This document shows, piece after piece, positions 20,238 to 63,476 of a DNA stretch of 64,000 bases. Below the pieces are notes generated by a model that was not told where the DNA came from, did not search any database, and saw nothing but the letters and a program-made list of their open reading frames with translations. The position numbers and the translations under genes were made by a program. The stretch spans positions 1-64,000 of the forward strand of contig JAJPKJ010000048.1 in assembly GCA_021323755.1 (NCBI GenBank), in the 5' to 3' direction. The stretch's first letter is position 1, and every line of letters begins with the position of its first letter. Source of the DNA: Chitinophagales bacterium (GTDB taxonomy: Bacteria > Bacteroidota > Bacteroidia > Chitinophagales > Chitinophagaceae).

Positions 20238-20309
20238 AATCGATAAAATGATAAATTTTCAATTCCTACCATGCATCAATCATCGTACAACTTAGATCAA
20301 TCATAATTT

Positions 20310-23213
20310 ATGCCTTTTTTCATTTTATATCTTGTAAAATTTTCCATCAGCGTTTCGATTGTGTATGTATTTTACCAGTTATTATTGCGAAAAATCACAT
20401 TCTATAATTGGAACCGCTGGTATTTGCTCGGTTATTCGCTATTATGTCTTTTTATTCCTTTCATTCATATCAACCCTCTTGCTGAAGAGCATAATTTCAG
20501 CAACGCACAGGTCTTTCGTTACATTCCGGCTATTGAAGATTATACAACAACACCTGTTCATATTGGGGGTAATGTTCCGGCAACTGTTCGTGGAATAAAC
20601 AGCTGGCCAATACTTTATTCATTACTACTTATCGGTGCATTGATAATGACGGCGCGTTTGATCATTCAATTTATTTCTTTGCAGAGAATAAAAAGAAAAG
20701 CAAGCATAATAAGTGATGGCGATACGATCATATATCATGTTGATAAAAAAATCATTCCTTTTTCTTTCGGCAATGCTATTTATCTGAACCGGGATTTACA
20801 TTCTGAAAAAGAATTGCAGGCAATCATTTTGCACGAATATGTTCATATAAAACAAAATCACACAGCCGATATTTTCTTTGCCGAATTTCTTTGCATCGTG
20901 AACTGGTATAACCCATTTGCCTGGTTGATGCGGCATGCCATAAGGCAGAATCTTGAATTCATTGCCGATAATCACCTGCTACAGAATGGTCTCGACAAGA
21001 AATCTTATCAATATCATTTATTAAATGTGGTGGGATCGACACAATACCGTATAGCCAACAGTTTCAATTTTTCTTCTTTAAAAAAACGTATAGCCATGAT
21101 GAACAAGATCAAAAGCGCTAAAGTCCATTTGCTTCGATTTTTATTTATGCTGCCATTAATAGCGTTGTTGTTACTCGCATTCAGAGACAAATACAAAAGG
21201 ATTTTTAAAAACCAAACTGTTATCAATGAAGTAGGAATTATTGTCGACATTAATTCCAAACAACCCATAGCCGGCGTATCAGTATCGGATACGATTTCGG
21301 GTGTGAAAACAATTTCTGATGAACGGGGATTTTATGCTATGAAAATTCCAATTATAACAAAGAATGATTTTTTCACTGTTGCGCTAAAATTTACAAAAGA
21401 AGGGTATGAAAATAATTCAAGTAGCGGAATGTACAGTTTTTCAAAAATGCAATCGCATGGTCATATAAATATTGATGCGCTTATTCCTTTATCGGGAACA
21501 AAATCAATTTCTTTTTTTGGACTAAATCCATTCAATAATAAATTCCCGGATGATCCTACCTACGAAGATGCATTGCAACAATTCAAAAAAGCAAAACGGG
21601 AAGGTGAGGATTGGGATCTCTATTTCAAATTGCAAAAAGATCATCCCGAAGTCAGCCTGTTTTATACGAGTGAATATAAAAAGAAGATTATTGTTTTCTA
21701 TCAAGACGGATTGATTGAAAAATATGGATTTCCTGGCGGAGCAACAATGGCTGATATGCAAAAAAAATTCGGACAGCTGCCTGATATGATGACCAAGAGC
21801 GAATTGCCTTTGCCGGCAGCTTACCTTGCCAAATGGGAATCTATTGCAGCAGAAGCAGAAAAGAAATTTCATACCGATAATCCTAATGTGTATGCAATTA
21901 TTTTCCCCGGCGACAGTCGCGTAATTGCTGTCCCTAAAAAGGGCAAGCCGCAAATTTATGACCTGGATAATGCTGTTCCTGAGGAAAGACCTGCATTTGA
22001 AAAACTATATGGCTCATTGGATGGAATAGTTCCGCCGGCGGCCAATTTTGTAAATGCAGCACATAATGATGAACGCTATAAGGATTGGAGAATCAGCGGA
22101 ATTGAATTTGTCGGGTTTAATAAAGTGGATTATGATAAAGACAATTCGGCAACCCATTTTACAGGGGAGGGGGTTTTAAAAATAAATAATGCAGCTCAGG
22201 CATTGATCATCTATCACAACAAAGAATATAATCCGGAGTCATTCAAGAACCAATTTGGTAATGGAAAAGTCAGTGATGTTTTTGTATACGAAAATGAAGG
22301 CGCGTTTAATAAGTTTGGCCAAAAAGGAAGATACGGAGTGATTGTCATTAATGATAATTCGTCAGCTTCAACATCCTCGGCTCACATTATTTCAGTTATC
22401 AAAAAAGATTCAGTTCCTTCAACATCTTCACACAAGCATTTTGGCATTTCATTACACAGGGACGACAGGATGAACCAGGAGGATAGAAATTTTTTTAACC
22501 GCAACGCCGGTATTCATTTATTACATTGGACTGCAGATGATAATCAATTGCAGATCTATCATGTTAAAGACGATATTGAAAATGTAAATCTGAAGAATAA
22601 TGGTGAGGTGCGAAACGCAATTGCGAAATATAAAAGCCTTCCCCAGGTCAGGGAATCGTATTTCGATAGGAAACCCCTCTTGGATTCAGTTCTGATCATG
22701 GTCGACAACAAAGAAATCAATTCATTGCAAATGGAAAGACTGGATGTCAAGGAAATAGAATCGATCAGCATAGTTAAAGATTCTTCGGCCATAAACCAAT
22801 ATGGTAACAGAGCGAAAAAAGGAGTGATAATAATTACAACAAAAAAAGCGCTCGAAAAAAATAAACGGGTGAAAAATAAAAAGAACGCTGATTTTTCTTT
22901 TGCATCAAATGATGGGAGTGAGATTAAAATTAAGATTTCAGTCATTAATCTTTTTCTGGAATATTTAAATGGTCCGCAAAACGATTACCGGTTAGTACCT
23001 ACAAATATTGGATTTGAAACCTCGGAACTTTCTAAATTGATTGATGATTATAATAAATTGCAAAGAAAAAGAGAGACACAATTGCACATAGCAAATGAAA
23101 ATGATATTGCTATTAAAGAAATAGATTACCGGTTGAAGGCAGATCGTGATAAGATCAATAATTTGCTGGGAGAGGTGAAGCATGACCTTGAATTGAAAAT
23201 GAACAGGGGTTGA
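20310..23213 (+). CDS. M56 (BlaR1-like) sensor peptidase with plug-like C-terminal region
   Basis: A 967-residue membrane protein. The N terminus has four helices around the M56 metalloprotease site HEYVHIKQN (H175, E176, H179) with QNLEFIADNHLL supplying the third ligand. A fifth helix near residues 275-295 is followed by a carboxypeptidase-regulatory-like domain (SKQPIAGVSVSD, SDERGFYAMKI). The remaining roughly 560 residues carry two segments that resemble TonB plug-domain ends: YGVIVINDN and IESISIVKDSSAINQYGNRA followed by KKGVIIITTKK. No penicillin-binding domain is present. It pairs with blaI; the stimulus is unknown. Confidence 0.85.
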   Translation: MPFFILYLVKFSISVSIVYVFYQLLLRKITFYNWNRWYLLGYSLLCLFIPFIHINPLAEEHNFSNAQVFRYIPAIEDYTTTPVHIGGNVPATVRGINSWPILYSLLLIGALIMTARLIIQFISLQRIKRKASIISDGDTIIYHVDKKIIPFSFGNAIYLNRDLHSEKELQAIILHEYVHIKQNHTADIFFAEFLCIVNWYNPFAWLMRHAIRQNLEFIADNHLLQNGLDKKSYQYHLLNVVGSTQYRIANSFNFSSLKKRIAMMNKIKSAKVHLLRFLFMLPLIALLLLAFRDKYKRIFKNQTVINEVGIIVDINSKQPIAGVSVSDTISGVKTISDERGFYAMKIPIITKNDFFTVALKFTKEGYENNSSSGMYSFSKMQSHGHINIDALIPLSGTKSISFFGLNPFNNKFPDDPTYEDALQQFKKAKREGEDWDLYFKLQKDHPEVSLFYTSEYKKKIIVFYQDGLIEKYGFPGGATMADMQKKFGQLPDMMTKSELPLPAAYLAKWESIAAEAEKKFHTDNPNVYAIIFPGDSRVIAVPKKGKPQIYDLDNAVPEERPAFEKLYGSLDGIVPPAANFVNAAHNDERYKDWRISGIEFVGFNKVDYDKDNSATHFTGEGVLKINNAAQALIIYHNKEYNPESFKNQFGNGKVSDVFVYENEGAFNKFGQKGRYGVIVINDNSSASTSSAHIISVIKKDSVPSTSSHKHFGISLHRDDRMNQEDRNFFNRNAGIHLLHWTADDNQLQIYHVKDDIENVNLKNNGEVRNAIAKYKSLPQVRESYFDRKPLLDSVLIMVDNKEINSLQMERLDVKEIESISIVKDSSAINQYGNRAKKGVIIITTKKALEKNKRVKNKKNADFSFASNDGSEIKIKISVINLFLEYLNGPQNDYRLVPTNIGFETSELSKLIDDYNKLQRKRETQLHIANENDIAIKEIDYRLKADRDKINNLLGEVKHDLELKMNRG

Positions 23214-23512
23214 CCGATTAAAAGACTTCATGGCGCTTTAATAAAGGAAAATTAACCACATGGACAGATGAATTAAAATATCAGGTTAATTTGTGCCTAT
23301 GCGGCAAAAACATCCATCTGGAAAATAAACCTAGCCTTCAATAGAAGCGCCATCGATGAACGGATTGCAATCCAATGTTGCCGAACCGGAGCTACTGAAA
23401 CTGGCATCATAATATTCATTCACTTTTTTCTCTGCCTATTTTACTGTAAATTTGCCGCCCAATTATTTTTAAACCGGCTTATAGCCAATTGCTATCAGCT
23501 CAAACTTTTTTA

Positions 23513-24079
23513 ATGGCAAATACAGCAGACATTAGTCGCGGCATGATTATCAAATTAGATGGCAGCCTGTACACCGTTGTTGACTTTGGTGAAAACAAAA
23601 CTGCACGCGCCGCTGCAAAAGTGTGGGCGAAATTGAAAGGTCTGGATAACAGTCGCTCCATTGAAAAGACATGGAACAGCGGCGACACTATTTTCCCCAT
23701 TCGTGTAGAGAGAAAAGATTTTCAATATTTATACAAAGATGACACCGGATACAATTTCATGGATAATGAAACCTTTGAACAAATTGCCATGAATGAAGAA
23801 ATGGTTGATGCCCCGCAGTTTTTGAAAGAAGGTCAACAGGTTTCTGTTCTTGTTAATACAGAAACAGAACTGCCGATGAGTGTTGAACTTCCGGACAAAA
23901 TTGTCTTGCAGGTCACTTATTCCGAACCAGGCGTTCGTGGTGATACGGCTACACGCACATTAAAACCTGCCAAGGTGGAAACGGGAGCAACAGTAAATGT
24001 TCCTTTATTTGTGAACGAGGGAGAATTAATAAAAATCAATACAAAAACCGGTGAATACGTGGAAAGAGTCAAAGAATGA
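23513..24079 (+). CDS. efp: Elongation factor P, Arg-tip type
   Basis: A 188-residue three-domain factor that relieves ribosome stalling at polyproline stretches. The ATG at 23513 gives the usual MANTADISRGM start; the frame to 23489 adds residues unlike the family. The tip loop of domain I reads ENKTARAAAKVWAKLKG, with Arg at position 32 where E. coli-type EF-P has Lys34 in PGKG. Domains II/III are standard (SYSEPGVRGDT-like block, FVNEGELIKINTKTGEYVER). TAAATTTG at 23447-23454 followed by GCCGCCC may be its -7 element. accB and accC follow. Confidence 0.93.
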   Translation: MANTADISRGMIIKLDGSLYTVVDFGENKTARAAAKVWAKLKGLDNSRSIEKTWNSGDTIFPIRVERKDFQYLYKDDTGYNFMDNETFEQIAMNEEMVDAPQFLKEGQQVSVLVNTETELPMSVELPDKIVLQVTYSEPGVRGDTATRTLKPAKVETGATVNVPLFVNEGELIKINTKTGEYVERVKE

Positions 24080-24185
24080 AACAGGTCGCCTGTGACCAGT
24101 TTCTGCCGTCCGGCAACTAGCTGACAGTAAGTAATTTCTTTTCCTTATCTTAGTCCACCATTTCACTAACTGTAAATTCATTAAT

Positions 24186-24674
24186 ATGGATTTTAAACAG
24201 ATTCAGGAGTTAATCAAGCTTGTCAACAAATCTAACATTGGCGAACTTACTATTGAAGAAAAAGGATTTCATATAACAATCAAACAAAAAGAGGAACCGG
24301 TGCAACAAATCATTAGCGCTGCGCCAACGCAGTACCAGCCAATGGTATCGCATCCCGTTTCTTCAGCTCCGGCAATTCAGCCGTTGGCAGTGGCGGAAAA
24401 GCCAAAAGTTGAAGAGCCTTCTGTTGCAAATAATCTAATTACCATCAAAAGTCCGATGATTGGAACTTTTTATAGAAGCCCTTCACCCGACAAACCATCT
24501 TTCATAAATATTGGCGATGAAATTGAACCAGGCAAAGTGGTTTGCATTATTGAAGCCATGAAATTGTTCAATGAAATTGAAAGCGAAGTGAAAGGAAAAA
24601 TAGTAAAGGTACTCGCCGAAGATGCATCACCTGTCGAGTATGATCAACCCTTATTTTTGGTAGAGCCTGTTTAA
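24186..24674 (+). CDS. accB: Biotin carboxyl carrier protein of acetyl-CoA carboxylase
   Basis: A 162-residue protein. An N-terminal helical part (MDFKQIQELIKLVNKSNIGE) is followed by a Pro/Ala/Val-rich linker (about 45-85) and a C-terminal biotinyl domain with the biotinylation motif EAMKL (K126). The carried biotin shuttles carboxyl groups between biotin carboxylase and carboxyltransferase in the first step of fatty-acid synthesis. accC follows 86 bp downstream and efp lies 106 bp upstream, a common gene order. Confidence 0.96.
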   Translation: MDFKQIQELIKLVNKSNIGELTIEEKGFHITIKQKEEPVQQIISAAPTQYQPMVSHPVSSAPAIQPLAVAEKPKVEEPSVANNLITIKSPMIGTFYRSPSPDKPSFINIGDEIEPGKVVCIIEAMKLFNEIESEVKGKIVKVLAEDASPVEYDQPLFLVEPV

Positions 24675-24683
24675 TGGCTTAAT

Positions 24684-24757
24684 GTGCAAATATGAAAGGG
24701 TGAAAATGTATTTTGTTTCCACCTTTCACGCATTACCACATTCATCACATTTGAAAG
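24684..24757. repeat. Heptad-periodic inverted repeat between accB and accC
   Basis: The accB-accC gap is built of 7-bp units: CTTTCAC, GCATTAC, CACATTC, ATCACAT in phase from 24723, with partly complementary units (GTGCAAA, TATGAAA, GGGTGAA) on the left from 24684. It ends 3 bp before the accC ATG. See the heptad finding. Confidence 0.5.
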
Positions 24758-24760
24758 TTT

Positions 24761-27367: not shown

Positions 27368-27386
27368 CATCACAAAGGTAAACAAT

Positions 27387-27477
27387 GTAGAATGTATGAT
27401 GTAAGATGTACAATTTTTCAATTTTAAAACAAAAATGAAAATCACGCATCTAAGATCTTGTATCAAACGTCTAAAAC
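27387..27477. repeat. Heptad-periodic dyad between ispH and GH13 gene
   Basis: Thirteen consecutive 7-bp units in one phase: GTAGAAT, GTATGAT, GTAAGAT, GTACAAT, then TTTTCAA and TTTTAAA, then units such as CACGCAT, CTAAGAT, CTTGTAT, CAAACGT. The right half resembles the reverse complement of the left. It spans most of the divergent region between the two start codons. Confidence 0.6.
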
Positions 27478-27487
27478 AGAAATATTT

Positions 27488-33777: not shown

Positions 33778-33819
33778 AAAATACGAAACAAGTTTTGGAA
33801 TTAGAAAATGGGAAACGCT

Positions 33820-33875
33820 CTCATTTCTTATTTTTCGTTATTTATTTCTCATTTACTTAGTATTTTACATTCTTT
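33820..33875. repeat. Heptad-periodic tract before PASTA gene
   Basis: Units CTCATTT, CTTATTT, TTCGTTA, TTTATTT, CTCATTT, ACTTAGT, ATTTTAC, ATTCTTT keep one 7-bp phase. It lies 18 bp before the GTG start of the PASTA protein. Confidence 0.5.
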
Positions 33876-33892
33876 AATAAAAAAATCCGTTC

Positions 33893-36039: not shown

Positions 36040-36065
36040 TGTTTGTCATTGGTAGCGCTCCGCAG

Positions 36066-36093
36066 CTACAAACCGCAAACTATAAACCTCAAT
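36066..36093. repeat. Heptad tract before second M56 gene
   Basis: CTACAAA, CCGCAAA, CTATAAA, CCTCAAT in one 7-bp phase, 2 bp before the ATG at 36096. A similar pair of words (AAACTAT, AAACCTT) precedes the sugar transferase start at 8366. Confidence 0.5.
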
Positions 36094-36095
36094 GT

Positions 36096-38183
36096 ATGCA
36101 TTTACTAAACAATGAAGCAATGCAAGCCATTTGCTGGACGTTGATCCACTCTTTGTGGCAAGGCCTATTACTTGCTGTGATTGGAGGTATCATTATCCTG
36201 GTTACAAAAAAATCAAATTCCGCAATACGATATAATTTATTATCCGGTTTGTTTCTTGCTTTTATTCTAACAGTTTTTTTCACTTTTGAAAGACAATACA
36301 ATCTTGCTTCGGTAAATAATAAAATTTCAGATTCACATGTAACAGCTCATTCAATTCAAAATATTAAATCCATAGTTTCTTCTGTTGACGAAACTCCCCC
36401 CGAAAAAAATAATATTGCAATATTCATTGATTATTTCAATGAGCATGCTTCCTTGATAGTAACCATTTGGTTTATTGTTCTAAGCGCCCAATTAATAAAT
36501 CTCATTGCGAATGCAGCCTACATTCAGCGCATCAAGCATTACAAAACATATTATCCTCCTATATATTGGAAAAGAAGAGTGAACGAACTTGCAGAGAAAC
36601 TAAATGTAAAACAAAAAATAGTATTGCTGCAGTCGGGAATTGTAAAAGTGCCGGTGATGGTTGGATTTTTTAAACCGGTCATCTTATTCCCATTAAGCTT
36701 ATTGTCACAATTACCGCCCGAGCAAATTGAGGCAGTGTTGCTCCACGAACTGGCGCATATCAAGCGCAAGGATTATTTCGTGAACATGCTTCAAAACCTT
36801 GCTGAAATCATTTTCTTTTTTAATCCAGGTCTCCTGTGGATCTCATCATTAATAAAAGATGAACGCGAAAATTGCTGCGATGATATCGCATTAAGAGCGA
36901 TCAATAATAAAAAAGAATTTATTCATGCACTTGTTTCCTTCCAGGAATTTCATTTGGAAAATTCAAAGTATTCTCTTGCATTTCCCGGAAGAAAAAATCA
37001 TCTGTTGAATCGTATAAAAAGAATTATTACCAGCAACAATAAAACACTTAACAATATGGAAAAGATCTCACTGGCATCATGCATTATTATTATTGGATTG
37101 ATAGTATTTGCGTTCAAACCTACCGACGAAAAGAATACATTTCAAAAACAAACGGCATCAAATGTATCTCCAATTGTTCACCTGAAAGATACAGTTCCTG
37201 GTACGCAGGAAAGCAGATCATTATTTTCTTACAGCACGAAATTAGATGGTAAAGAATACAGAATAAAGGAAGTGAATGATAAAGTGACGGAGTTTCTTGT
37301 TGACGGGAAAAAAATTCCAGATGATAAGATAAAAGACTACCAGGATATTATTGACAGGATTCATATACAAGCAAAAAAGGAACAGGAAGAATTACAATTG
37401 CAGAATGAAGCATTGCAAAAAGAAAGAAATGAAATGATGGAACAAAGGGAAATAATGGCAAAAAAACAGCAGGAAATGGACGAACTGGAAAATAGAGATA
37501 GAGCGACGGAATATGCCCGCAAAGCGGAGAAGCTAGAAATGATGAATAAACTACTTGCAGAACAGGAAGCCCTCAACTTAAAATTGGATCAGTTGAAAAG
37601 AATGCAGGAAATGGATGCTTTGGCTGAAAGCAAATCCATATATGGAAAACCTGAGTTATTAAATGATCAGCAATCAGCGCTGATTGCTCAAAACGAAGAT
37701 ATGAAAAAGGCCCTGGCTGATATCGCCTATAAATCAAGAATAATCAGGGATAAGGGCGCTACCGATGCAGATTCACGAAAGCTTATGTACGATTTGCAAG
37801 ATCATGCAAAAGAATTGTATGAACAACAGGAGATACTGAATAAAGAAATGCGGAATAAAATGCTGATGGACGCAAGATTGCACGATAATAATTCTTTGCC
37901 CTTCAGAAGAGATGATGTACTCATGGAAGTACCCAGAGCGCCTTTTGCCAATGGGGTTATTGAAAGGATCGTTGAAAATATGCTTGATGCAAAACTTATT
38001 ACCAGCGTGGATGATCTTTCTTTCACTTTAAATAAAAAAGAATTTAAGATAAATGGAGTAGTTCAACCTGAGGAGATACATCAGAGATTTAAAGAAAGCT
38101 ATATTAAGGGCAATAGCAACAACCACATAAAATATTCGAAACACGGGGGTTCCACCAGCACAGAGGCAATTATCAATGATTAA
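36096..38183 (+). CDS. M56 (BlaR1-like) sensor peptidase with coiled-coil domain
   Basis: A 695-residue protein. The ATG at 36096 puts the first membrane helix at the N terminus; the frame to 36039 overlaps blaI and is heptad repeat. Four helices surround HELAHIKRKD (H217, E218, H221) and ERENCCDDIAL (third-ligand region). After a further membrane helix (about 330-345) comes a periplasmic or cytoplasmic region with a strongly charged coiled coil (about 425-520, rich in Glu/Gln/Lys/Met) and a second helical stretch, without a penicillin-binding domain. It should cleave or trigger loss of the partner BlaI on an unknown signal. Confidence 0.85.
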   Translation: MHLLNNEAMQAICWTLIHSLWQGLLLAVIGGIIILVTKKSNSAIRYNLLSGLFLAFILTVFFTFERQYNLASVNNKISDSHVTAHSIQNIKSIVSSVDETPPEKNNIAIFIDYFNEHASLIVTIWFIVLSAQLINLIANAAYIQRIKHYKTYYPPIYWKRRVNELAEKLNVKQKIVLLQSGIVKVPVMVGFFKPVILFPLSLLSQLPPEQIEAVLLHELAHIKRKDYFVNMLQNLAEIIFFFNPGLLWISSLIKDERENCCDDIALRAINNKKEFIHALVSFQEFHLENSKYSLAFPGRKNHLLNRIKRIITSNNKTLNNMEKISLASCIIIIGLIVFAFKPTDEKNTFQKQTASNVSPIVHLKDTVPGTQESRSLFSYSTKLDGKEYRIKEVNDKVTEFLVDGKKIPDDKIKDYQDIIDRIHIQAKKEQEELQLQNEALQKERNEMMEQREIMAKKQQEMDELENRDRATEYARKAEKLEMMNKLLAEQEALNLKLDQLKRMQEMDALAESKSIYGKPELLNDQQSALIAQNEDMKKALADIAYKSRIIRDKGATDADSRKLMYDLQDHAKELYEQQEILNKEMRNKMLMDARLHDNNSLPFRRDDVLMEVPRAPFANGVIERIVENMLDAKLITSVDDLSFTLNKKEFKINGVVQPEEIHQRFKESYIKGNSNNHIKYSKHGGSTSTEAIIND

Positions 38184-43515: not shown

Positions 43516-43520
43516 TTAAT

Positions 43521-43569
43521 GTCAGATGTAGGATGGATGATTTTGATCTAAAATCACATCCTGCGTTAG
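43521..43569. repeat. Heptad-periodic hairpin between era and der
   Basis: GTCAGAT, GTAGGAT, GGATGAT, TTTGATC, TAAAATC, ACATCCT, GCGTTAG in one phase. The centre folds as TGATTTT-GATCT-AAAATCA, extended by GGATG/CATCC. The left units match the GTANGAT words of the ispH-GH13 tract at 27387. Confidence 0.55.
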
Positions 43570-43595
43570 ACATTGTGCACTAAATATCAAAACTT

Positions 43596-49972: not shown

Positions 49973-49974
49973 GC

Positions 49975-50072
49975 GAATGGTCAATAGTGAATATCTGATT
50001 TAATATTCCCAATTATAGTCTGACCATTCACTATTGACATCTCATAATTCATAATTTATAACTCATATTTCA
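49975..50072. repeat. Fourteen in-phase heptads before FAH-family gene
   Basis: From 49975 to 50072 the whole gap splits into fourteen 7-bp units. The last seven are CCATTCA, CTATTGA, CATCTCA, TAATTCA, TAATTTA, TAACTCA, TATTTCA. The first ones (GAATGGT, CAATAGT) are reverse complements of the later CCATTCA/CTATTGA words, giving a 13-bp stem (49980-49992 with 50026-50038). It ends 2 bp before the ATG at 50075. Confidence 0.7.
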
Positions 50073-50074
50073 TC

Positions 50075-50950: not shown

Positions 50951-51029
50951 TTGGAAATGGAGAAATGACGGTAAAATGTGGCTCAATTTAAACTGTTAGT
51001 ACATCGTAAAAATAAAATCGTACATCAAA

Positions 51030-51812
51030 ATGGATTTGCAATTAAAAGATAAAGTGATTATTGTAACCGGCGGCGCGAAGGGAATTGGTGAAGGTATTGT
51101 AAAACTGCTCGCTGCTGAAGGTGCAATTCCGGTTATTGTTGGCAGAAATCGCGAAGACAATCTCAAAGTTTTGCATGAGCTGCAAGCCAATGGCAGGAAT
51201 GCTTTTCAGGTTGTTGCCGAATTAACGCAACCCAACGAATGTGAGCATGCAGTAAAAAAAACCATTGAACATTTTGGAAAGATTGACGGATTGGTGAATA
51301 ATGCCGGTGTTAATGATGGAGTAAATCTTGAACATGGAAATTATGAATTATTCGTTGAATCGCTTCATAAGAATCTTATTCATTATTATTTGATGGCGCA
51401 TTTTGCTTTGCCTGAATTAAAGAAATCGAAAGGTGCAATAGTGAATATTAGTTCGAAAACTGCCGAGACAGGACAAGGAGGAACATCGGCTTACGCTGCT
51501 GCAAATGGAGGCCGTAATGCGCTTACACGAGAATGGGCTGTAGAATTGTTGAAATATGAAATTCGCGTGAATGCAATTGTTGTTGCGGAATGCTGGACGC
51601 CGTTGTATGAGAGTTGGATAAAGACATTACCAAACCCAGCAGAAAAATTGAAAGATATAGTTTCAAAGATTCCATTGGAAAAAAGAATGACTACAGCTGA
51701 AGAAATTGCAAACGCAGTTGCATTTTTATTATCGCCAAAATCGAGTCACACAACCGGACAGTTAATTCATGTTGATGGAGGTTACGTTCACCTGGACAGA
51801 GCGATCGGCTAA
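51030..51812 (+). CDS. SDR dehydrogenase, L-fucose dehydrogenase-like
   Basis: A 260-residue short-chain dehydrogenase: TGGAKGIGEG (cofactor loop), NNAGVNDGVNLEHG, ISSKTAETGQGGTSAYAAANGG (catalytic Ser; note YAAANGG where YxxxK would have Lys, replaced by Asn) and GQLIHVDGGYVHLDRAIG. Missing the catalytic Lys in Y-x3-K, it keeps the rest of the fold. Related bacterial proteins in sugar-acid clusters are annotated L-fucose dehydrogenase. This assignment is inferred from context; altered catalysis is possible. Confidence 0.75.
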   Translation: MDLQLKDKVIIVTGGAKGIGEGIVKLLAAEGAIPVIVGRNREDNLKVLHELQANGRNAFQVVAELTQPNECEHAVKKTIEHFGKIDGLVNNAGVNDGVNLEHGNYELFVESLHKNLIHYYLMAHFALPELKKSKGAIVNISSKTAETGQGGTSAYAAANGGRNALTREWAVELLKYEIRVNAIVVAECWTPLYESWIKTLPNPAEKLKDIVSKIPLEKRMTTAEEIANAVAFLLSPKSSHTTGQLIHVDGGYVHLDRAIG

Positions 51813-51820
51813 ACGGGAAT

Positions 51821-51848
51821 TATGAGGTACATGGTAAGAGGTACGAAT
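51821..51848. repeat. Heptad tract before DinB-like gene
   Basis: TATGAGG, TACATGG, TAAGAGG, TACGAAT in one phase, then ATTCTTA complementary to TAAGA. It lies 27 bp before the ATG at 51876. Confidence 0.5.
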
Positions 51849-51875
51849 TCTTATGCAATTTTAAATTTTTTAACG

Positions 51876-52502
51876 ATGAAAGACCTAATGATTTTTCTTA
51901 AGAGCTTGATGCTTTTTTTTATTCTATTTATTGCCGTAGAAAGTATTTCGTCCGCTAAAAAAAATGTAAAAGAAAGTTCACCAAAGAAATCTGTTACTGA
52001 TATTTCTTTGGCGAATGCTGTGGAAAGACAACTTAATGGCATTGAAAGGAATATTATCAATACGGCGGAACAAATGCCGGATGACAGGTTTTATTTTACT
52101 CCTGAAAGTCTGAACCTGAAAGGAAGTGAATTTAAAGGTGTTCGCACTTTTGCAGGACAAATAAAGCATCTTGCTGCAGATAATATTTTTATCTGGAGCG
52201 CGGTTACTGGCGATACGGTAAGAGCTGATATGACGGATGTGAACGGACCGGCTAGTATAAAAACAAAAGCAGACATCATTAAATATTTAAAAGAATCATT
52301 TGCGTTGGGTCATAAAGCAATTGCGACACTAACAGAAAAAAATGCGATGGAAATGATTTCTTTTCGCGGAAGAGACTTACCGCGACTCGATCTGGTATTT
52401 TATGCGCTCACTCACGCCAATGAACATTACGGGCAAATGGCTGTTTATATAAGAATGTGTGGAATAATCCCATTTGCAAGTTTGCCACCAAATAATAATT
52501 AA
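51876..52502 (+). CDS. Exported DinB-superfamily protein
   Basis: A 208-residue protein, start 51876, with an N-terminal hydrophobic segment (IFLKSLMLFFILFIAVESIS) that acts as signal peptide or anchor. The rest is the four-helix DinB/YfiT-like fold: LANAVERQLNGIERNIINTA, FAGQIKHLAADNIFIWSA (metal-binding His) and YALTHANEHYGQMAVYIRMC (H-x3-H pair). DinB-like proteins are putative metal-dependent hydrolases or thiol transferases. It is embedded in the sugar-acid cluster, with no evident role in it. Confidence 0.85.
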   Translation: MKDLMIFLKSLMLFFILFIAVESISSAKKNVKESSPKKSVTDISLANAVERQLNGIERNIINTAEQMPDDRFYFTPESLNLKGSEFKGVRTFAGQIKHLAADNIFIWSAVTGDTVRADMTDVNGPASIKTKADIIKYLKESFALGHKAIATLTEKNAMEMISFRGRDLPRLDLVFYALTHANEHYGQMAVYIRMCGIIPFASLPPNNN

Positions 52503-56022: not shown

Positions 56023-56064
56023 CCATTCAATTCTAAATTCTCAATCCTAACTTCTAAATTCTTT
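56023..56064. repeat. Heptad tract before gapA
   Basis: CCATTCA, ATTCTAA, ATTCTCA, ATCCTAA, CTTCTAA, ATTCTTT: six units in phase, ending about 42 bp before the gapA ATG. A -7-like TAACTTCG with GCGTCC follows at 56067. Confidence 0.6.
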
Positions 56065-56106
56065 CTTAACTTCGCGTCCTTAATTTAAAATCAAATTTGT
56101 TAAACT

Positions 56107-57120: not shown

Positions 57121-57183
57121 GAAATTGCCGTAAAGCATCGTTGGTTCGCACCCTTATACAGCACATCATTATTGTACGAAGTA

Positions 57184-57246
57184 AAAAATCAAAAGTAAAA
57201 ATTAAAAAAACAGGTCTTAGCTTTTTAATTTTTACTTTTTAATTCA
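57184..57246. repeat. Heptad-built 18-bp inverted repeat before pgk
   Basis: AAAAGTAAAAATTAAAAA (57191-57208) and TTTTTAATTTTTACTTTT (57222-57239) are perfect complements around a 13-base loop. The whole block also divides into nine 7-bp units from 57184 (AAAAATC, AAAAGTA, AAAATTA ... TAATTTT, TACTTTT, TAATTCA). It ends 5 bp before the pgk ATG, so a strong AT hairpin sits in the 5' leader or acts as an attenuator. Confidence 0.75.
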
Positions 57247-57251
57247 CCAAC

Positions 57252-58445
57252 ATGAGCAAATTCGCTGATTATAATTTTTCTGGACAAAAAGCACTAGTGC
57301 GCGTTGATTATAACGTTCCACTAAATGATAAATTCGAAATTACAGACGACACCAGGATGCGCGCAACTGTTCCCACCATCAAAAAGATCCTTAATGATGG
57401 GGGGAGTGCTATTTTAATGTCTCATCTTGGTCGGCCAAAAGGCGGACCGGAAGATAAGTTTTCATTAAAGCATTTGATAAAGCATTTAAGCGAATTATTA
57501 GGTTCGCCGGTTCTATTTGCCAATGATTGCATTGGAGAGCAGGCACATCTTACAGCAAATATGCTCCGACCAGGCGAAGTTTTATTATTAGAGAATTTGC
57601 GTTTTTATAAAGAAGAAGAAAAAGGTGACGTTGCCTTCGCGAAGAAATTATCAACGCTTGGTGATGTTTATGTAAATGATGCATTCGGAACTGCGCATCG
57701 CGCGCATGCTTCAACGGCAGTAATCGCTCAATTTTTTCCGCCCGATAAAAGAATGTTTGGATTATTAATGGAAAGCGAAGTCAGCAGTGCTGAAAAAGTT
57801 TTGCATCAATCACAAAGACCATTTGTAGCGATCATTGGCGGAGCAAAGGTGTCGGACAAAATATTAATCATTGAAAATTTGCTTGATCGTGCAACAGATA
57901 TTATTATCGGCGGTGGTATGGCCTATACATTTATGAAAGCAATGGGCGGAAAGATAGGCAATTCATTATGTGAAGAAGATAGATTGGGAACTGCTAATGA
58001 ATTATTGAAAAAGGCAGCAGAAAAAAATGTATCCATTCACCTGCCATCGGATTCCGTAATTGCAGATAAGTTTGATGCTAATGCAAATGATTCAACAGCG
58101 CCAAGCAATAATATTCCTGACGGATGGATGGGATTGGACATTGGTGAAAATGCCTGCGAGCAATTCAGTAATGTCATTAGAAATTCAAAAACCATATTAT
58201 GGAATGGACCAATGGGCGTCTTCGAAATGCAAAAATTTCAACACGGAACAAAAGCCATTGCCATGGCCATTGCTGCATCCACGCAAAATGGGGCCTACTC
58301 ATTAGTAGGGGGTGGCGATAGTGTTGCCGCAGTTAATCAATTTGGATTCGCCGATAAAGTGAGTTATGTTTCCACCGGCGGCGGCGCCATGCTGGAATAT
58401 TTTGAAGGAAAAGAATTGCCTGGCATTGCTGCGATCAAAGGCTAA
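57252..58445 (+). CDS. pgk: Phosphoglycerate kinase
   Basis: A 397-residue two-lobe kinase that makes ATP from 1,3-bisphosphoglycerate. Motifs: [50 protein letters not shown] (signature), [21 protein letters not shown] and [10 protein letters not shown] with the C-terminal [20 protein letters not shown]. Length is standard. The 5' leader holds the large hairpin described at 57184. The next gene starts 10 bp on. Confidence 0.97.
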
Positions 58446-58454
58446 ATTTTTTTT

Positions 58455-59129
58455 ATGAAATATTATAAATCGGCTCCCGCCTGTTTGATTTTTTTCTTTT
58501 TGGTTCTTATTAATCATATTTCTGCACAGGTACCGGTTAGGTTTGAACCTCATCATCGGGTAGTCTTGGAGAATGAATACGTCAGATTGATTGATGTTCA
58601 TATTCTTCCACATGATACAACAAAGACGCATATCCACGCTGAGGCTTCGGTTATTGTTTTTCTCAGTAACGCAAAGATCGGAACACAAATAGTAGGTGAC
58701 AGCCCCGTGATTGCTGACGTAAAGCCTGCACAAATAGGTTATGCTGAATATGATGAGAAACCAATTACACATAAAGTTTGGAATCAGGGCGATTCACTAT
58801 TTCATGTAATGGATATTGAACTGCTGAAAAAAAATCCTTCGAATGATAGTTGTGCCGTTTTATCGGAGAACGGCTTTGAATTAAAACGAACCCAAAAATT
58901 AGTTCGTGTTTATAATCTGCACCTCGTTCCTGGTAAAAAATACCAGATCGGAAAATCAAGCTGCGCACACCTTTTGATTAATGTGTCCGGATACAGCAAT
59001 GCGTTTTCTTCAAACGTAATCCATTCTTTAGCACCCGAAACTTTTATTTTTTTTCCACCACAGCGTATTGTCGAGATCACCGACAATACAAAAGACAATG
59101 CAGAATGTGTACTGCTAGAATTCAAATAG
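58455..59129 (+). CDS. Exported cupin-like protein
   Basis: A 224-residue protein with a signal peptide (about 1-25, ending HISAQ). It has two cupin-like halves: HHRVVLENEYVRLIDVHILP with THIHAEASVIVFLS (paired His), and LVRVYNLHLVPGKKYQIGKS with a similar strand pattern. Metal-binding His in the first half look intact; the second is degenerate. It lies 9 bp after pgk and may be cotranscribed, although it is envelope-located and has no evident link to glycolysis. Function unknown. Confidence 0.7.
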   Translation: MKYYKSAPACLIFFFLVLINHISAQVPVRFEPHHRVVLENEYVRLIDVHILPHDTTKTHIHAEASVIVFLSNAKIGTQIVGDSPVIADVKPAQIGYAEYDEKPITHKVWNQGDSLFHVMDIELLKKNPSNDSCAVLSENGFELKRTQKLVRVYNLHLVPGKKYQIGKSSCAHLLINVSGYSNAFSSNVIHSLAPETFIFFPPQRIVEITDNTKDNAECVLLEFK

Positions 59130-59145
59130 TTAGGTTTCTCATTTT

Positions 59146-61611
59146 CTATTTTTCTGCAGGAAGTTTTGATTTAATATAATCTGCCTGTTCTGTTGAGCCT
59201 GCGGCTTGTTTTTTCTGCATCAGGTCTTTTAAGGCATCATTTATTTCAGGATCAGTGAAAGAATGAAATTGCTGCGGAATATCGCCTCTTATTTTCACCA
59301 ACAGGTCAACTCCTTTTTTAACTTTATCCGTACTTTTTACATTTGCTAAAAAATGCGCAAAGGGTTTTATAGAAAAAAATTGTTCGTTGCCAAATTGCAG
59401 GCTTGCGTAATTATCAAAGATCGCATCAAATTTTGATTCGTCGCTATTGCTCAGAATGGCATATTTCAATTCACCTTTTGCAGGAGCAGATGATAATTTT
59501 TTTGTTTGTTCAATGGCTGCTACGGAATCTAATTTACTTAATGCTATTAATGCATCTCCGGCAACCATGTAGGAAGAATCGTTGATGGAGTTGAGAAATA
59601 ATTCTCTATAGCTGGGGTTTTTATAATTTCCCAGGATTTGTATTGCGCGAGCTTTCAGTGGTTTGTATTTTTCGTTTTTAGCGATATTCAGAATCTCCGT
59701 TTCCAGCGCAGTTTTCACGGTGTCATTATCTGTATGAATTTCCTCAAGTGCTGTACTTTTTATTCTCCATAATTTATCATGCAAACATTCCTTAAGAAAA
59801 TTCAATGCTTTTGGTTCTGTTTGATGTTGTAATGCAAATATCAATGCTTCTCTTCTGTCGACAAATAGACCGGCATGATGATATTGATAAATAAATTCAT
59901 CCAATGTTTTGTGATCGTTTTTTTCGCAGAGTAATATTTTGTCGCCATCAACATTGATAAGATCAGGTTTTGTATTTGCCGAAAATGAAAATGTGTCTGT
60001 TGCATCATTCAACCAGACATGATATCGCTTTTTGTTTCCGTTTTCATAAACATCAATCGCAAAAGGAAGCTTAAATGCTTTTGCAGCCTGCGTTTGCGTG
60101 ATGAAGACTTTTGCTGTTTTATTTGCAGCATCATAACTATAACTGATATCCAATTTCGGGTGACCGACACCGTAATACCATTGATTCCAAAACCAGTTCA
60201 TATCCTTTCCAGTCACTTCTTCAAATGCCAACCGAAGATCCTGCGCTTCTCCATTATTGAACTTATGTGTGTTGAGATATAATTTCAGTGATTTTGTAAA
60301 AGCGCTGTCACCGACATAGTTGCGCAGCATGTGTAAGATTCGTCCGCCCTTTGCATAACTGACTGCGTCGAAAACATCATCTTTGTCGTAATAATGAAAA
60401 CGAACCAACGATTTTAAAGTATCATCGGGGTTACTCAAATAATTTCTCATTGCCCGATTATTGTACCCGTCAGCATCATCTTTGCCATATTTATATTCAC
60501 GCCAGAGCGTTTCGCCATAATCGGCAAATGACTCATTGAGGGTGACATTCGGCCAACTTTCGCAGGTAACATAATCGCCAAACCATTGATGAAATAATTC
60601 ATGTGCAATCGTTTCTTCCTGGGGATTTCCATCCGCGAGTTCTCTTGCATCTTGTTCAATAAAATCTCCATGCAGCGTATTACTGGTGTTTTCCATCGAA
60701 AAACTTTCATTGTCCACACCAACGATCTGTACATATTTCGGCCATGGATAATCAACACCAGTAACTTTTGAATAAAATGCAATCATCTCCGGAGTTAATC
60801 CGAATATCCTTCTTGCAACATTGGCATATTTCTTTTCTACATAATAGCTCACTTCTTTGCCGTGATAGCTATCTTTTATTACGGCATAATCACCTACTCC
60901 CATAAAAAATAAATAAGGCTTGTTAGGCAGATCCATTTTCCAGGTATCGGTGCGCGTTCCGTCTGTATTGCTCTTTTGATTCACCAACAAACCATTACTC
61001 ATCGTTTTATATTTGACGGGAACGGTCATCCTTATTTCCTGCGTTGTGGTTTGATTGGGTTTATCAATCGTTGGCAACCATGCTGAATTGAATTCGCTTT
61101 CACCCTGTGTCCAGATTTGCGTTGATTTATTTTTTTCAGTTCCTCTGGGATTAATAAAATACAATCCTTTCGCGCCTACAATGGAGTTGGCTTCCAGCTT
61201 GCGTTCATCAGGTTTTGAAATATAATCTATGAATATGACATAGTTTTCATTTGCCTTATAAGTTTTGTCGAGATTAATGCGAACATTAGCATTATCGTAA
61301 GAATATTTCAGTGGAATATTCTTACCGTTTTCAACAACGGATATTTCATTAAAGGTTATTCCTTTTGCATCGAGATTTAATGAATCTGTGGGGTAAAAAT
61401 GCGGATGTATTGTTATCCATTCTTTTCCATACATCCAGGATTTATTAAAATCAAATTTCACCTCCAATTTGGTATGAACAAGATCGTTGATCTTTGTTGC
61501 AGACGGGCGGTAAATTTTTTTCCAAGGCTCTTCCTTTTTTATGGTATCAGTTGCTTGCGAAAAAACACTCATGGCACTTAATATGCAAGCGCAGAATAGA
61601 AGATTTCTCAT
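59146..61611 (-). CDS. M1-family metallopeptidase (aminopeptidase N-like)
   Basis: An 821-residue exported peptidase; start 61611 gives the signal (MRNLLFCACILSAMSVFSQA), while the frame to 61686 overlaps the next gene's region. The zinc site is HELFHQWFGDYVTCESWPNV followed by TLNES (HExxH-18-E), with SMENTSN upstream as the exopeptidase GAMEN equivalent (SMEN). The N-terminal beta domain precedes it, and a HEAT-like helical domain (about 620-820) follows. It trims N-terminal residues from peptides in the periplasm. Confidence 0.93.
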   Translation of the reverse strand: MRNLLFCACILSAMSVFSQATDTIKKEEPWKKIYRPSATKINDLVHTKLEVKFDFNKSWMYGKEWITIHPHFYPTDSLNLDAKGITFNEISVVENGKNIPLKYSYDNANVRINLDKTYKANENYVIFIDYISKPDERKLEANSIVGAKGLYFINPRGTEKNKSTQIWTQGESEFNSAWLPTIDKPNQTTTQEIRMTVPVKYKTMSNGLLVNQKSNTDGTRTDTWKMDLPNKPYLFFMGVGDYAVIKDSYHGKEVSYYVEKKYANVARRIFGLTPEMIAFYSKVTGVDYPWPKYVQIVGVDNESFSMENTSNTLHGDFIEQDARELADGNPQEETIAHELFHQWFGDYVTCESWPNVTLNESFADYGETLWREYKYGKDDADGYNNRAMRNYLSNPDDTLKSLVRFHYYDKDDVFDAVSYAKGGRILHMLRNYVGDSAFTKSLKLYLNTHKFNNGEAQDLRLAFEEVTGKDMNWFWNQWYYGVGHPKLDISYSYDAANKTAKVFITQTQAAKAFKLPFAIDVYENGNKKRYHVWLNDATDTFSFSANTKPDLINVDGDKILLCEKNDHKTLDEFIYQYHHAGLFVDRREALIFALQHQTEPKALNFLKECLHDKLWRIKSTALEEIHTDNDTVKTALETEILNIAKNEKYKPLKARAIQILGNYKNPSYRELFLNSINDSSYMVAGDALIALSKLDSVAAIEQTKKLSSAPAKGELKYAILSNSDESKFDAIFDNYASLQFGNEQFFSIKPFAHFLANVKSTDKVKKGVDLLVKIRGDIPQQFHSFTDPEINDALKDLMQKKQAAGSTEQADYIKSKLPAEK

Positions 61612-61682
61612 TTTGGTATTTTTATAAGTAGTTAGGAAATCAGGCCGGAAAGCAAATGTATTTGAAATACGAACAACAATGC

Positions 61683-63038
61683 TCAATATTTAAAAACCTT
61701 TCCATTCACCATTACTTCTTGGGTAGCTTCATCAAATGTTGCTTTATAACCGGTGCGAACAGAAGCGTTGGTCATTATGGTGGCAATGGAGTGTGAGTAA
61801 CCGGCTTCCACCGGTGCATTCGGTTGCTTGCGGCTTCGCACACATTCCATCCAATTACGCACATGGTTCGAAGTTAGTAAATCGCCGCCGGTATTCGCAG
61901 ATGCAACCACTTTCTCTTCCATATCCGACAAGCTCATTTCTGGTAATAAATTTGGTTTCATTCCCATTGCTGCAGCTTCTTTTTCATGTAGTCCTCCGCG
62001 GGGAGAAATCTTATTGGTAATAAGATTTAATTCTCCGCCGTTGGAATAATAAATTTCTGATGGGTTTTCGTCACCATTATGCATGCGTGAAGAAAAAATG
62101 ACCTGGAAGTTTTTTTCGTTACTGTCATCACCGTATTCAAACACGGCAGCCGTTGTATCCCAATTTTGTCTGCCGTCTTTCCACACATATACACCACCGT
62201 TAGCGACAACGCTACGGGGATGCTTTAATCCGCTGAACCAATGTACCGTATCGATCTGGTGGCTCATCCATTGTCCCGGCATGCCCGATGAATAGGGCCA
62301 GAACAAACGGAATTCAAGATAATGTCTTGCATTGAAAGGTTCGTAAGGTCGGTTCAATAAAAATCTTTTCCAGTCTGTGTCTTCCTCTTTCAATTGCGGA
62401 ACCAATGCAGTTCTCCGCCATCTACCAGGCTGGTTCACATTCCAGGTTAGCTCGACCATAGTAACGTTTCCGAATTTTCCAGACTGAACAAATGCTGCAG
62501 CCGCTTTATAATTTGCACCACTTCTTCTCTGTGAACCGATCTGTACAATTTTATTTGATTCTCTCACCGCTCTTAGGGCAGCGCGATTATCTTCCATCGT
62601 TTCTGCAAATGGTTTTTCTGCATATACATCGCAACCTCCTTTCACTGCTTCAATAGTATGCAATGCATGTTGAAAATCTGCAGTGCTCATAAAAACAGCA
62701 TCTACCATTTTGGATGAGTATAATTCTTCATTATTGCGAAATCCGGTTATATCGTGTTGCATTTTTTCTTTCCAAAATGCAGATCCTTCGTCTCTTCTTT
62801 TTTTCCAAATGTCGGATACAGCAACAATATCAAAATTCAATTCTTTATAATGATTCATAAAACTCGGAGCATGTGAACTGCGATGGCGATCGGAAAATCC
62901 AACTACGCCAACACGCACCCGATCATTAGCGCCGATAATGTTACGATAGTTCTTTGCACTTAAACTTAAAGCGCCCAGGTAAGTGCCTGCGCCGGCTACA
63001 GCGCCTTTCTTAATGAATTCCCTGCGAGAATTTTTCAT
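61683..63038 (-). CDS. Tat-exported Gfo/Idh/MocA oxidoreductase
   Basis: A 451-residue protein. The N terminus has a twin-arginine signal (NSRREFIKKGAVAGAGTYLG). The Rossmann part is RVRVGVVGFSDRHRSSHAPS, with VDAVFMSTADFQHALHTIEA and CDVYAEKPFAETMEDNRAAL (the EKP motif). The C-terminal dehydrogenase domain has MPGQWMSHQIDTVHWFSGLK (catalytic His region). It is expected to be exported folded with its bound nucleotide and act on a sugar or glycan. It is on the same strand as the M1 peptidase and the cupin. Confidence 0.92.
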   Translation of the reverse strand: MKNSRREFIKKGAVAGAGTYLGALSLSAKNYRNIIGANDRVRVGVVGFSDRHRSSHAPSFMNHYKELNFDIVAVSDIWKKRRDEGSAFWKEKMQHDITGFRNNEELYSSKMVDAVFMSTADFQHALHTIEAVKGGCDVYAEKPFAETMEDNRAALRAVRESNKIVQIGSQRRSGANYKAAAAFVQSGKFGNVTMVELTWNVNQPGRWRRTALVPQLKEEDTDWKRFLLNRPYEPFNARHYLEFRLFWPYSSGMPGQWMSHQIDTVHWFSGLKHPRSVVANGGVYVWKDGRQNWDTTAAVFEYGDDSNEKNFQVIFSSRMHNGDENPSEIYYSNGGELNLITNKISPRGGLHEKEAAAMGMKPNLLPEMSLSDMEEKVVASANTGGDLLTSNHVRNWMECVRSRKQPNAPVEAGYSHSIATIMTNASVRTGYKATFDEATQEVMVNGKVFKY

Positions 63039-63110
63039 GACAATATTTTTTGAATTTCTGATTTTAGTTCGCTATTGACTGCAGCCAATAGCCATAGCAG
63101 ATAAAAAAAA

Positions 63111-63440
63111 CTATTTCTCTCCGCTGGATGGTCCGTAAAAAAATACCCAGGTTAGCAGATCTTCCGTAAAGCTAATGAAACGATGTTCAGCATGCGCGGG
63201 AACGAATAAAAAATCTCCTTGCTTGAATGATACACTTCTTCCTTCGCAGTAGAAATTGCCTTCGCCGGAAATAATAATATACACTTCGTCTTTGTCGTGT
63301 GGCTGCTGTTTGTCGGTTTTATCCGGACGATAAACTTCAACTTCCAGCGTTCCATGCTTGAAAAGCGAAATAAATTCGTTTCCAGATTCTTTCAATTTCT
63401 GCAAAGCCTCGACAGCTGAAATTTTTATGTCGTTACTCAT
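63111..63440 (-). CDS. Small cupin-domain protein
   Basis: A 109-residue single cupin: HGTLEVEVYRPDKTDKQQPH, DEVYIIISGEGNFYCEGRSV (first motif) and GDFLFVPAHAEHRFISF (second motif with conserved His). Cytoplasmic. It lies 72 bp upstream of the oxidoreductase on the same strand. Such cupins may be sugar-phosphate isomerases or metal-dependent regulators; function not assigned. Confidence 0.85.
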   Translation of the reverse strand: MSNDIKISAVEALQKLKESGNEFISLFKHGTLEVEVYRPDKTDKQQPHDKDEVYIIISGEGNFYCEGRSVSFKQGDFLFVPAHAEHRFISFTEDLLTWVFFYGPSSGEK

Positions 63441-63441
63441 T

Positions 63442-63476
63442 TGGTGAATAATGAATGGTGAGTGGTGAGTTATATC
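63442..63476. repeat. Heptad tract before cupin gene
   Basis: On the plus strand TGGTGAA, TAATGAA, TGGTGAG, TGGTGAG, TTATATC. The tract begins 1 bp upstream of the cupin ATG (minus strand, at 63440). Confidence 0.6.

What the first reader, a model, noticed from the sequence alone, without database searches (positions are those of the whole stretch)
20275..63476. Recurrent intergenic tracts written in degenerate 7-bp units
At least eleven gaps (20275, 24684, 27387, 33820, 36066, 43521, 49975, 51821, 56023, 57184, 63442) divide into consecutive 7-bp words that hold one phase for 4 to 14 units. Nearly all end within about 60 bp of a start codon, often within 5 bp. Several are large inverted repeats built from the same words. 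The words differ between loci but fall in groups (GTANGAT; TNATTCA; AAAAGTA). Tandem slippage alone does not explain degenerate, dyad-symmetric copies. I know of heptameric STRR repeats in cyanobacteria but no matching description in Bacteroidetes. Possible roles: unstructured AT-rich translation leaders, protein-bound hairpins, or relics of an unknown replicating motif.
Basis: seen in the sequence. Interest (0 to 1): 0.75.

Follow-up and report, generated by a model that had tools for sequence, protein, structure and literature searches.

The report
Degenerate seven-base word arrays between genes
Some gaps between genes in this bacterium are written in loosely repeated seven-base words; the excess is real, some related genomes carry much stronger versions folded into hairpins, and the pattern looks more like a fast-changing by-product of DNA copying than a fixed control signal.

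Summary
The lag-7 signal is real: 22 tracts in 478 sampled gaps of the window's genome, against 2.05 in shuffles and 0-7 at other lags. Nearness to start codons is not above chance. In a congener (G015) and a family member (G330) such words build long intergenic hairpins: 107 near-perfect ones in 496 kb of G015, none in 870 kb of the window's genome. In G015, 2 of 273 gaps hold more than one. The 5' arm is mostly G-rich, opposite to T-run terminators of related genomes. In 22 kb compared, a sister species of G330 has none; one array-filled 221-bp gap is 8 bp there. No reverse transcriptase or Y1 transposase occurs in the window's genome. Best reading: slippage in 7-8-bp steps plus copying between hairpin arms, with an unknown way of spreading; arm copying is shown best in G015 only. 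Heptamer repeats are in print, also in five Bacteroidetes (PMC4679880); the mirrored form did not turn up in my paper searches.

The parts
27384..27441 (.). heptad tract (GTAGAAT GTATGAT GTAAGAT GTACAAT ...) in a divergent gap
   Evidence: lag-7 score 17, p=0.002; dyad p=0.08; divergent gap 27371-27487
33778..33892 (.). weak heptad tract
   Evidence: lag-7 score 9, p=0.02; dyad not significant, p=0.75
43516..43595 (.). imperfect dyad of GATGTAG-like words directly after a stop codon
   Evidence: lag-7 p=0.012, inverted repeat p=0.049
49973..50074 (.). imperfect dyad followed by TAATTCA-like words up to the start codon
   Evidence: lag-7 score 16, p=0.002, inverted repeat p=0.016; tract 50023-50073
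56029..56062 (.). heptad tract ATTCTAA ATTCTCA ATCCTAA CTTCTAA upstream of the GAPDH gene
   Evidence: lag-7 score 15, p=0.002; dyad p=0.23; none of 21 GAPDH loci of relatives (L004-L024) has a lag-7 segment of score 13
57174..57244 (.). AAAAGTA-word dyad in the GAPDH-PGK gap, where many relatives have an ordinary GC-rich hairpin (by eye)
   Evidence: lag-7 score 18, p=0.002, inverted repeat p=0.016; relatives
63445..63470 (.). TGAATGG/TGAGTGG words between two minus-strand genes
   Evidence: lag-7 score 13, p=0.002; dyad p=0.53
51017..51026 (+). ATCGTACATC, one of 11 genome copies of a word family, 3 bp before an ORF start at 51030
   Evidence: ORF
24675..24760 (.). listed gap: marginal dyad, no significant lag-7 signal
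   Evidence: lag-7 p=0.33, inverted repeat p=0.066
20238..20309 (.). listed gap, lag-7 not significant
   Evidence: p=0.142
36040..36130 (.). listed gap, lag-7 not significant (bounds set by hand)
   Evidence: p=0.065
51813..51905 (.). listed gap, lag-7 not significant (bounds set by hand)
   Evidence: p=0.10

Best explanation
These are sparse, perhaps eroded members of a class of non-coding intergenic repeats made of degenerate 7-bp (in some relatives also 8-bp) words. Inferred mechanism: (1) replication slippage adds or removes units in 7-8-bp steps; (2) where an array has an inverted partner, the nascent strand can switch template across the hairpin, so one arm is re-copied from the other, and copies drift apart in spelling while their arms stay alike; (3) such hairpins spread within a genome by a route not identified here and sit between genes because insertions there are tolerated. 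Lack of SbcCD, the nuclease known (recalled) to cut long palindromes, may permit the long perfect arms. I propose no conserved function. Shown: the period, the intergenic bias, gain in one lineage, words shared between loci, mirrored arms in G015 and partly in G330, arm polarity in both. Inferred: slippage, template switching, the spreading route, the role of SbcCD, and that the window's tracts are of the same origin.
For: Lag 7 above shuffles and above other lags, mainly intergenic. G015: 55 lag-7 and 35 lag-8 intergenic segments against 0-6 at other non-harmonic lags. G330: 48 at lag 7 against 0-5 (stretches partly chosen around word matches). Mirroring without selecting for pairing: the CTTTGCG family of G015, found by word pattern only, has 1.50 mismatches between the arms of one copy and 4.06 between copies, 14 of 28 pairs perfect against 1.2% (12 further arms unpaired; 5 of the 31 loci given were brought in by exact matches to the pattern). 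For G015 heptad clusters the own arm is the best match in 13 of 22. Arm mismatches show no clear gene-sense G.U excess: 79 G.U to 75 A.C, on another cut 75 to 65 in G015 and 38 to 29 in G330, as expected if arms are kept alike at DNA level. Gain: in 22 kb aligned to G330, sister species G343 has no lag-7 segment (score 13) and no hairpin (score 15); a 221-bp gap filled mostly by an array is 8 bp there; the TGAAT word pattern has 84 + 87 matches in G330 and 0 in all of G343. SbcD is over its cut-off in 3 of 12 genomes, not in G000, G015 or G330. Precedent: template switching creating and maintaining hairpins (PMC8794818, passages).
Against: In G330 the own arm is best in only 7 of 28 clusters, median rank 5, so mirroring is not general. 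G000 has no near-perfect hairpin in 870 kb, so arm copying is not shown there; 3 of 11 gaps have a significant dyad. Hundreds of matches to one family (CTTTGCG, 180 + 185 in G015) need a spreading step that slippage does not give. G343 lacks SbcD over the cut-off too and yet has no arrays in the 22 kb seen; G204 has SbcD and TGAAT words. The 5'-G-rich polarity is not explained. The pattern test failed for the two heptad families tried: arms of one copy were no more alike than arms of different copies (8.65 against 8.36; 6.88 against 7.30), which I put down to register slips.
Confidence: 0.45

Rival explanations
1. In the window's genome these are only simple heptamer repeats made by replication slippage; the few dyads are chance or old terminators, and the hairpins of G015 and G330 are a separate phenomenon.
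For: No near-perfect hairpin in 870 kb of G000; dyads significant in 3 of 11 gaps; slippage idea for heptamers cited in PMC4692102 and PMC4679880.
Against: By eye, GTGAATG-like and GCTAAAN-like words occur in G000, G015 and G330, and GATGTNN-like words in G000 and G330. Three of 11 significant dyads are more than shuffles give. Gaps with a tract lean G left, C right in 16 of 22 (5 the other way), but so do 285 of all 478 gaps (167 the other way), so this is weak.
Confidence: 0.25
2. The hairpins are non-autonomous mobile elements (REPIN- or MITE-like) moved by a transposase in trans; word variation is secondary.
For: Many copies per genome with a recurring order of word blocks (by eye); 2 of 273 gaps in G015 hold two or more hairpins where random placement gives 15.6-19.2; gain against G343; Y1 transposase matches in G330 (4) and G015 (3), none in G343; one G015 Y1 gene (L197) has a word-type hairpin just upstream of it.
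Against: No Y1 transposase in G000 or G142, which carry words. Of the 20 Y1 loci scanned (9 of 11, 11 of 12) only L197 has a word-type hairpin directly beside the gene, and hairpins occupy 103 of 273 G015 gaps anyway; L344 and L345 hold words farther off; some have palindromes of other kinds. Target-site duplications were not tested systematically, nor other transposase families.
Confidence: 0.2
3. They are RNA hairpins kept by selection, such as transcription terminators.
For: In G015 hairpins occupy 31 of 55 convergent, 57 of 157 co-directional and 15 of 61 divergent gaps, and in co-directional gaps start a median 15 nt after the stop codon; one G330 array stands where G343 has a T-run hairpin.
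Against: T-run terminators taken from G000, G002, G025 and named relatives (not from G015 or G330) have a C-rich 5' arm (62 of 93; 23 G-rich; some may be counted twice), word hairpins the reverse (G330 lag-7 30 of 31; G015, all classes, 110 against 22, 16 ties); other G330 hairpins show no bias (9 against 9). No clear G.U bias. In G000 0 of 63 convergent and 4 of 99 divergent gaps have tracts. One G330 array separates genes 8 bp apart in G343.
Confidence: 0.12
4. C-rich, G-poor word tracts before start codons are leaders that help translation or bind a regulator, as proposed for TAACTGA repeats.
For: In 18 co-directional G000 tracts the gene-sense strand has 94 C and 40 G (11 tracts C-rich, 6 G-rich); words of the ATCGTACATC family run to near an ATG in 5 of 11 places (by eye).
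Against: Nearness to starts is not above chance (P=0.06 within 10 bp); the tract before GAPDH has no lag-7 counterpart in 21 GAPDH loci of relatives; G015, G330, G002 and named relatives show no sense bias.
Confidence: 0.1
5. A reverse transcriptase copies a short RNA template again and again, as DRT10 or telomerase do.
For: DRT10 adds 9-nt tandem repeats from an RNA template (PMC12632851, passages).
Against: RVT_1 matches in 3 of 10 genomes searched (G002, G339, G025) and in none of G000, G015, G330, G204, G142.
Confidence: 0.02

Closest known systems
TAACTGA heptamer repeats of Beggiatoaceae, cyanobacteria and five Bacteroidetes (PMC4679880; abstract and two sections read)
   Same: Intergenic heptamer arrays, patchy between species, in places mixed with other heptamers, indels mostly in 7-nt steps between two close strains
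   Different: One near-exact word in direct repeats, mostly just before start codons in the main genome; here many degenerate words, mirrored arms in relatives, no start-codon excess
Degenerate heptanucleotide repeats of the Nostoc tRNA-Leu intron P6b stem (PMC3488679, one passage)
   Same: Degenerate 7-nt words that pair into a hairpin and vary in copy number
   Different: One site inside an intron, not dispersed gaps
Heptameric G-rich repeats of Xanthomonas and Nostoc (PMC4692102, passages)
   Same: Heterogeneous intergenic heptamers, length and sequence vary between close species, some inverted
   Different: One G-rich family studied for quadruplexes; here several, mostly AT-rich, word families
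Hairpins created and maintained by template switching (PMC8794818, passages including its abstract)
   Same: One arm re-copied from the other keeps stems perfect
   Different: Shown on RNA gene histories, not on dispersed word arrays
REP palindromes (PMC3733652, search listing only)
   Same: Dispersed palindromes outside genes
   Different: 20-40 bp with a GTAG or CGTC tag at one end; no such tag was searched for here, and copies here differ in length and words

Membership tests
heptameric degenerate tandem repeats of bacteria (STRR-like) | 7-bp period well above neighbouring lags, mainly intergenic | tested here: met
heptameric degenerate tandem repeats of bacteria (STRR-like) | same words shared by several loci of the genome | tested here: met
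   one family: ATCGTACATC 11 against 2 for the reversed control; a blind 11-mer ranking showed no word family at the top
TAACTGA repeats | location just upstream of start codons | tested here: not met
   not above chance: P=0.06 within 10 bp; 13 of 18 against 11.9 within 60 bp
intrinsic terminators | 5' arm composition like ordinary T-run terminators | tested here: not met
   opposite polarity in G015 and in G330 lag-7 hairpins; the terminators compared come from other relatives
intrinsic terminators | excess in convergent gaps | tested here: inconclusive
   G015 31 of 55 convergent gaps; G000 0 of 63
REP/REPIN with Y1 transposase | cognate Y1 transposase in the genome, flanked by the element | tested here: not met
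   no Y1 match in G000; in relatives 1 of 20 Y1 loci scanned (L197) has a word-type hairpin directly beside the gene
RT-made tandem repeats (DRT10-like) | reverse transcriptase in the genome | tested here: not met
   no RVT_1 match in G000, G015, G330
template-switch maintained hairpins | arms alike within a copy, different between copies | tested here: inconclusive
   met for the G015 octamer family (14 of 28 perfect) and 13 of 22 G015 heptad clusters; 7 of 28 in G330; failed for two heptad word patterns; not shown in G000
known RNA families (Rfam 15) | match at gathering score | tested here: not met
   100 kb of G015 (5 of its 26 stretches) gave one tRNA only; the window was not scanned

The most novel reading that the evidence does not exclude
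A class of palindromic elements in Bacteroidota without an enzyme of their own: short word arrays that grow in 7-8-bp steps, rewrite one arm from the other, nest word blocks inside one another, and so spread and spell themselves anew at each site, tolerated where SbcCD is missing.
Probability: 0.25. Interest if true: 0.75.

Novelty: new variant of a known kind. Interest (0 to 1): 0.5.

Why it matters
Heptamer excess in bacterial genomes was reported in 2007 (as cited in PMC4692102 and PMC4679880) without a settled cause. A genome such as G015, with 107 near-perfect word hairpins in 496 kb, and a pair such as G330 and its sister G343, with and without arrays, would make the slippage and template-switch ideas testable. 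It also warns that compensatory change in such stems need not prove a functional RNA.

Tried and rejected
Y1 (REP) transposase as mobiliser: family searched in 6 genomes (4 with matches) and 8 genomes (6 with matches); flanks of 20 loci scanned. One G015 locus (L197) has a word-type hairpin directly upstream, the rest do not; not convincing, not excluded for relatives.
Reverse transcriptase.
RNA-level selection by G.U against A.C: no clear bias.
CDS tails copied into the hairpin as a fold-back scar: 5 overlaps in G015, 1 in G330, none in G000, G002, G025, and those seen are mostly word sequence.
Blind 11-mer ranking of shared sequence in G000: no word family at the top.
Pattern-based arm pairing for the heptads TTGANTA and GTGAGAC: arms of one copy not more alike than arms of different copies; I blame register slips, so I used the cluster test.
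The control (pattern read backwards) is itself a 7-spaced pattern; by my count 20 of the 296 genomes match it, so it is no null for period.
One search listed no alignments because my filter kept one strand only; one search repeated it. In one search five congeners (G021, G022, G017, G007, G009) were printed in the wrong orientation; I therefore rest on the strand-blind count.
One search, the first paper search, brought nothing on the topic.
Full report
Check of the observation. The window lies in a 4.08-Mb genome of 75 contigs (G000). Named records with the most similar GAPDH include Terrimonas, Niastella and Chitinophagaceae MAGs. I compared each sequence with itself at lags 4 to 21 (match +1, mismatch -1) and counted high-scoring segments. 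In 870 kb of this genome (window plus 43 stretches) the intergenic count at score 13 is 14 for lag 7, 4 for lag 14 and 0-3 for other lags; ORFs give 4 for lag 7. In 478 gaps, score 11 gives 22 against 2.05 in shuffles. The start-codon link is within what short gaps give.

Other genomes. In 57 named Bacteroidota loci around GAPDH the intergenic lag-7 count is 18, with 9 at lags 8 and 14 and 0-7 elsewhere; in 23 Firmicutes loci it is 1. In 496 kb of G015, placed in the same genus, intergenic segments number 55 at lag 7 and 35 at lag 8, with 41, 17 and 27 at the harmonics 14, 16 and 21, and 0-6 elsewhere. The hairpin scan found 118 there: 57 in co-directional, 32 in convergent and 16 in divergent gaps, 8 in ORFs, 5 at edges. 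At a stricter score G015 has 107, while G000 (870 kb), G002 (140 kb) and G025 (140 kb) have none. Some are composite: one word family outside, another inside, mirrored on both arms (L178:10166-10322, L192:17401-17541, L181:1938-2197). G330, another genus of the same family, has 48 lag-7 segments in gaps and 12 in ORFs of 400 kb; these stretches were partly chosen around word matches. In an even draw of 296 genomes of the phylum the strict TGAAT word pattern occurs in 64. In 32 genomes of the genus, 4 have the octamer CTTTGCG pattern: G015 180 + 185 matches, G339 10 + 3, G021 3 + 3, G023 2 + 2.

Are arms copied from each other? For the CTTTGCG family, found by words only, arms of one copy differ by 1.50 of 23 bases and arms of different copies by 4.06; 14 of 28 pairs are identical, and 2000 permutations never fell below 3.11; 12 arms had no partner. 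The AGAGCGG family shows it more weakly (2.82 against 3.91; 4 of 17 perfect; permutation minimum 3.12). Two heptad patterns failed in that test. For heptad clusters split at the G/C switch, the own arm ranks first in 13 of 22 in G015 but only in 7 of 28 in G330. So arm matching is clear in one genome, partial in another and unproven in the window's genome.

What they are not. Word hairpins mostly have a G-rich 5' arm (G330 lag-7 30 of 31; G015 110 against 22 with 16 ties), while 93 T-run terminators of G000, G002, G025 and named relatives lean to C (62 against 23); other G330 hairpins show no bias. Mismatches show no clear RNA signature: 79 G.U to 75 A.C. Rfam finds only a tRNA in 100 kb of G015. 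Y1 transposases are absent from G000; of 20 Y1 loci of relatives that I scanned, one (L197, G015) has a word-type hairpin directly beside the gene, which is not much in a genome where 103 of 273 gaps have a hairpin. RVT_1 reverse transcriptases are absent from G000, G015 and G330.

Gain in one lineage. G343 is the only other genome of G330's genus in the set; the TGAAT pattern matches 84 + 87 times in G330 and not in G343. Over 22 kb of G343 aligned to G330 at about 66-80% identity, no lag-7 segment of score 13 and no hairpin of score 15 was found, though its intergenic part there is small. At G330 L301:9997-10217 a gap of 221 bp, mostly array, separates two genes that in G343 are, by my reading, 8 bp apart; at L301:3940-4424 an array stands where G343 has a T-run hairpin. 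Around the window's GAPDH, 21 loci of relatives (20 of the genus, and G025) have no lag-7 segment of score 13. By eye, many relatives have an ordinary hairpin after GAPDH, but two Chitinophaga records (L074, L087) have a heptad dyad with other words in that same gap.

Placement. In G015, 2 of 273 gaps have two or more hairpins, where random placement gives 15.6-19.2 (minimum 6-10). This fits a site effect, new material growing within an existing hairpin, or selection for one hairpin per gap; the data do not decide.

Mechanism. I favour slippage in 7-8-bp steps, with template switching across the hairpin keeping arms alike, plus an unidentified way of spreading. Heptamer slippage has been proposed before (as cited in PMC4692102 and PMC4679880), and template switching as a maker and keeper of hairpins is described in PMC8794818 (passages). 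SbcD is over its cut-off in 3 of 12 genomes (G204, G007, G025), not in G000, G015, G330. That fits tolerance of long palindromes, but G343, also without it, shows that it does not suffice.

Literature seen. PMC4679880: abstract, Introduction and the section on Cyanobacteria and Bacteroidetes. PMC4692102, PMC3488679, PMC2700814, PMC8794818 and PMC12632851: passages. PMC2700814 describes tandem heptanucleotide elements in Geobacter. PMC3733652: listing only. That the mirrored composite form is undescribed rests on nine searches of one open-access library, two of which (51, 62) were aimed at mechanisms; it is not a full review. Cyanobacterial STRRs of 1990 and the role of SbcCD at palindromes are recalled, apart from what the cited papers say.

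Verdict. A real and fairly common signal, a new variant of known heptamer repeats. The window's own tracts are modest; the interest lies in the relatives.

Noticed in passing
G015 loci L170-L195: Octamer word hairpins (CTTTGCG, CTATGTG, GTCGATAA, GTTGATTG) and fixed families (AGAGCGGAGAAACAGAGCGG; TTTGAACCATGATTAAAGG; TCTGAACCGGGATT) beside the heptads.
   Followed up: partly
L301:3996-4315, L301:5068-5319, L304:14916-15063, L312:7977-8259: G330 repeats a core of roughly 150 bp (GTGCGAGACC..GGTCTCGCAC, GTCGCC..GGCGAC); in L301 and L312 heptad words flank it on both sides.
   Followed up: no
genomes: The SbcD model is over its cut-off in only 3 of 12 genomes searched; of the 10 in the window's family only G007 has it.
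   Followed up: partly
L337, about 1200-1420: A Y1 transposase gene of G330 has short palindromes of another kind beside it (GTGCTCC..GGAGCAC), unlike the word arrays.
   Followed up: no
L197:1388-1445: A G015 Y1 transposase gene (ORF from 1474) has a word-type imperfect hairpin (GATTTTGA words) directly upstream.
   Followed up: no
L180:17225-17277: A perfect 25-bp inverted repeat with a 3-base loop in G015 that is not made of 7- or 8-bp words.
   Followed up: no
window 56060-56106: Congeners share a GTAACTTYGC-like stretch shortly before GAPDH, possibly a promoter; the window's heptads lie next to a similar stretch (by eye).
   Followed up: no
L176:1-56, L177:1-58, L191:1-58: Three G015 contigs begin in such a hairpin, so assemblies may break there.
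   Followed up: no
478 gaps of G000: Gaps lean G-rich left and C-rich right in general (285 against 167, 26 ties), not only those with words.
   Followed up: no
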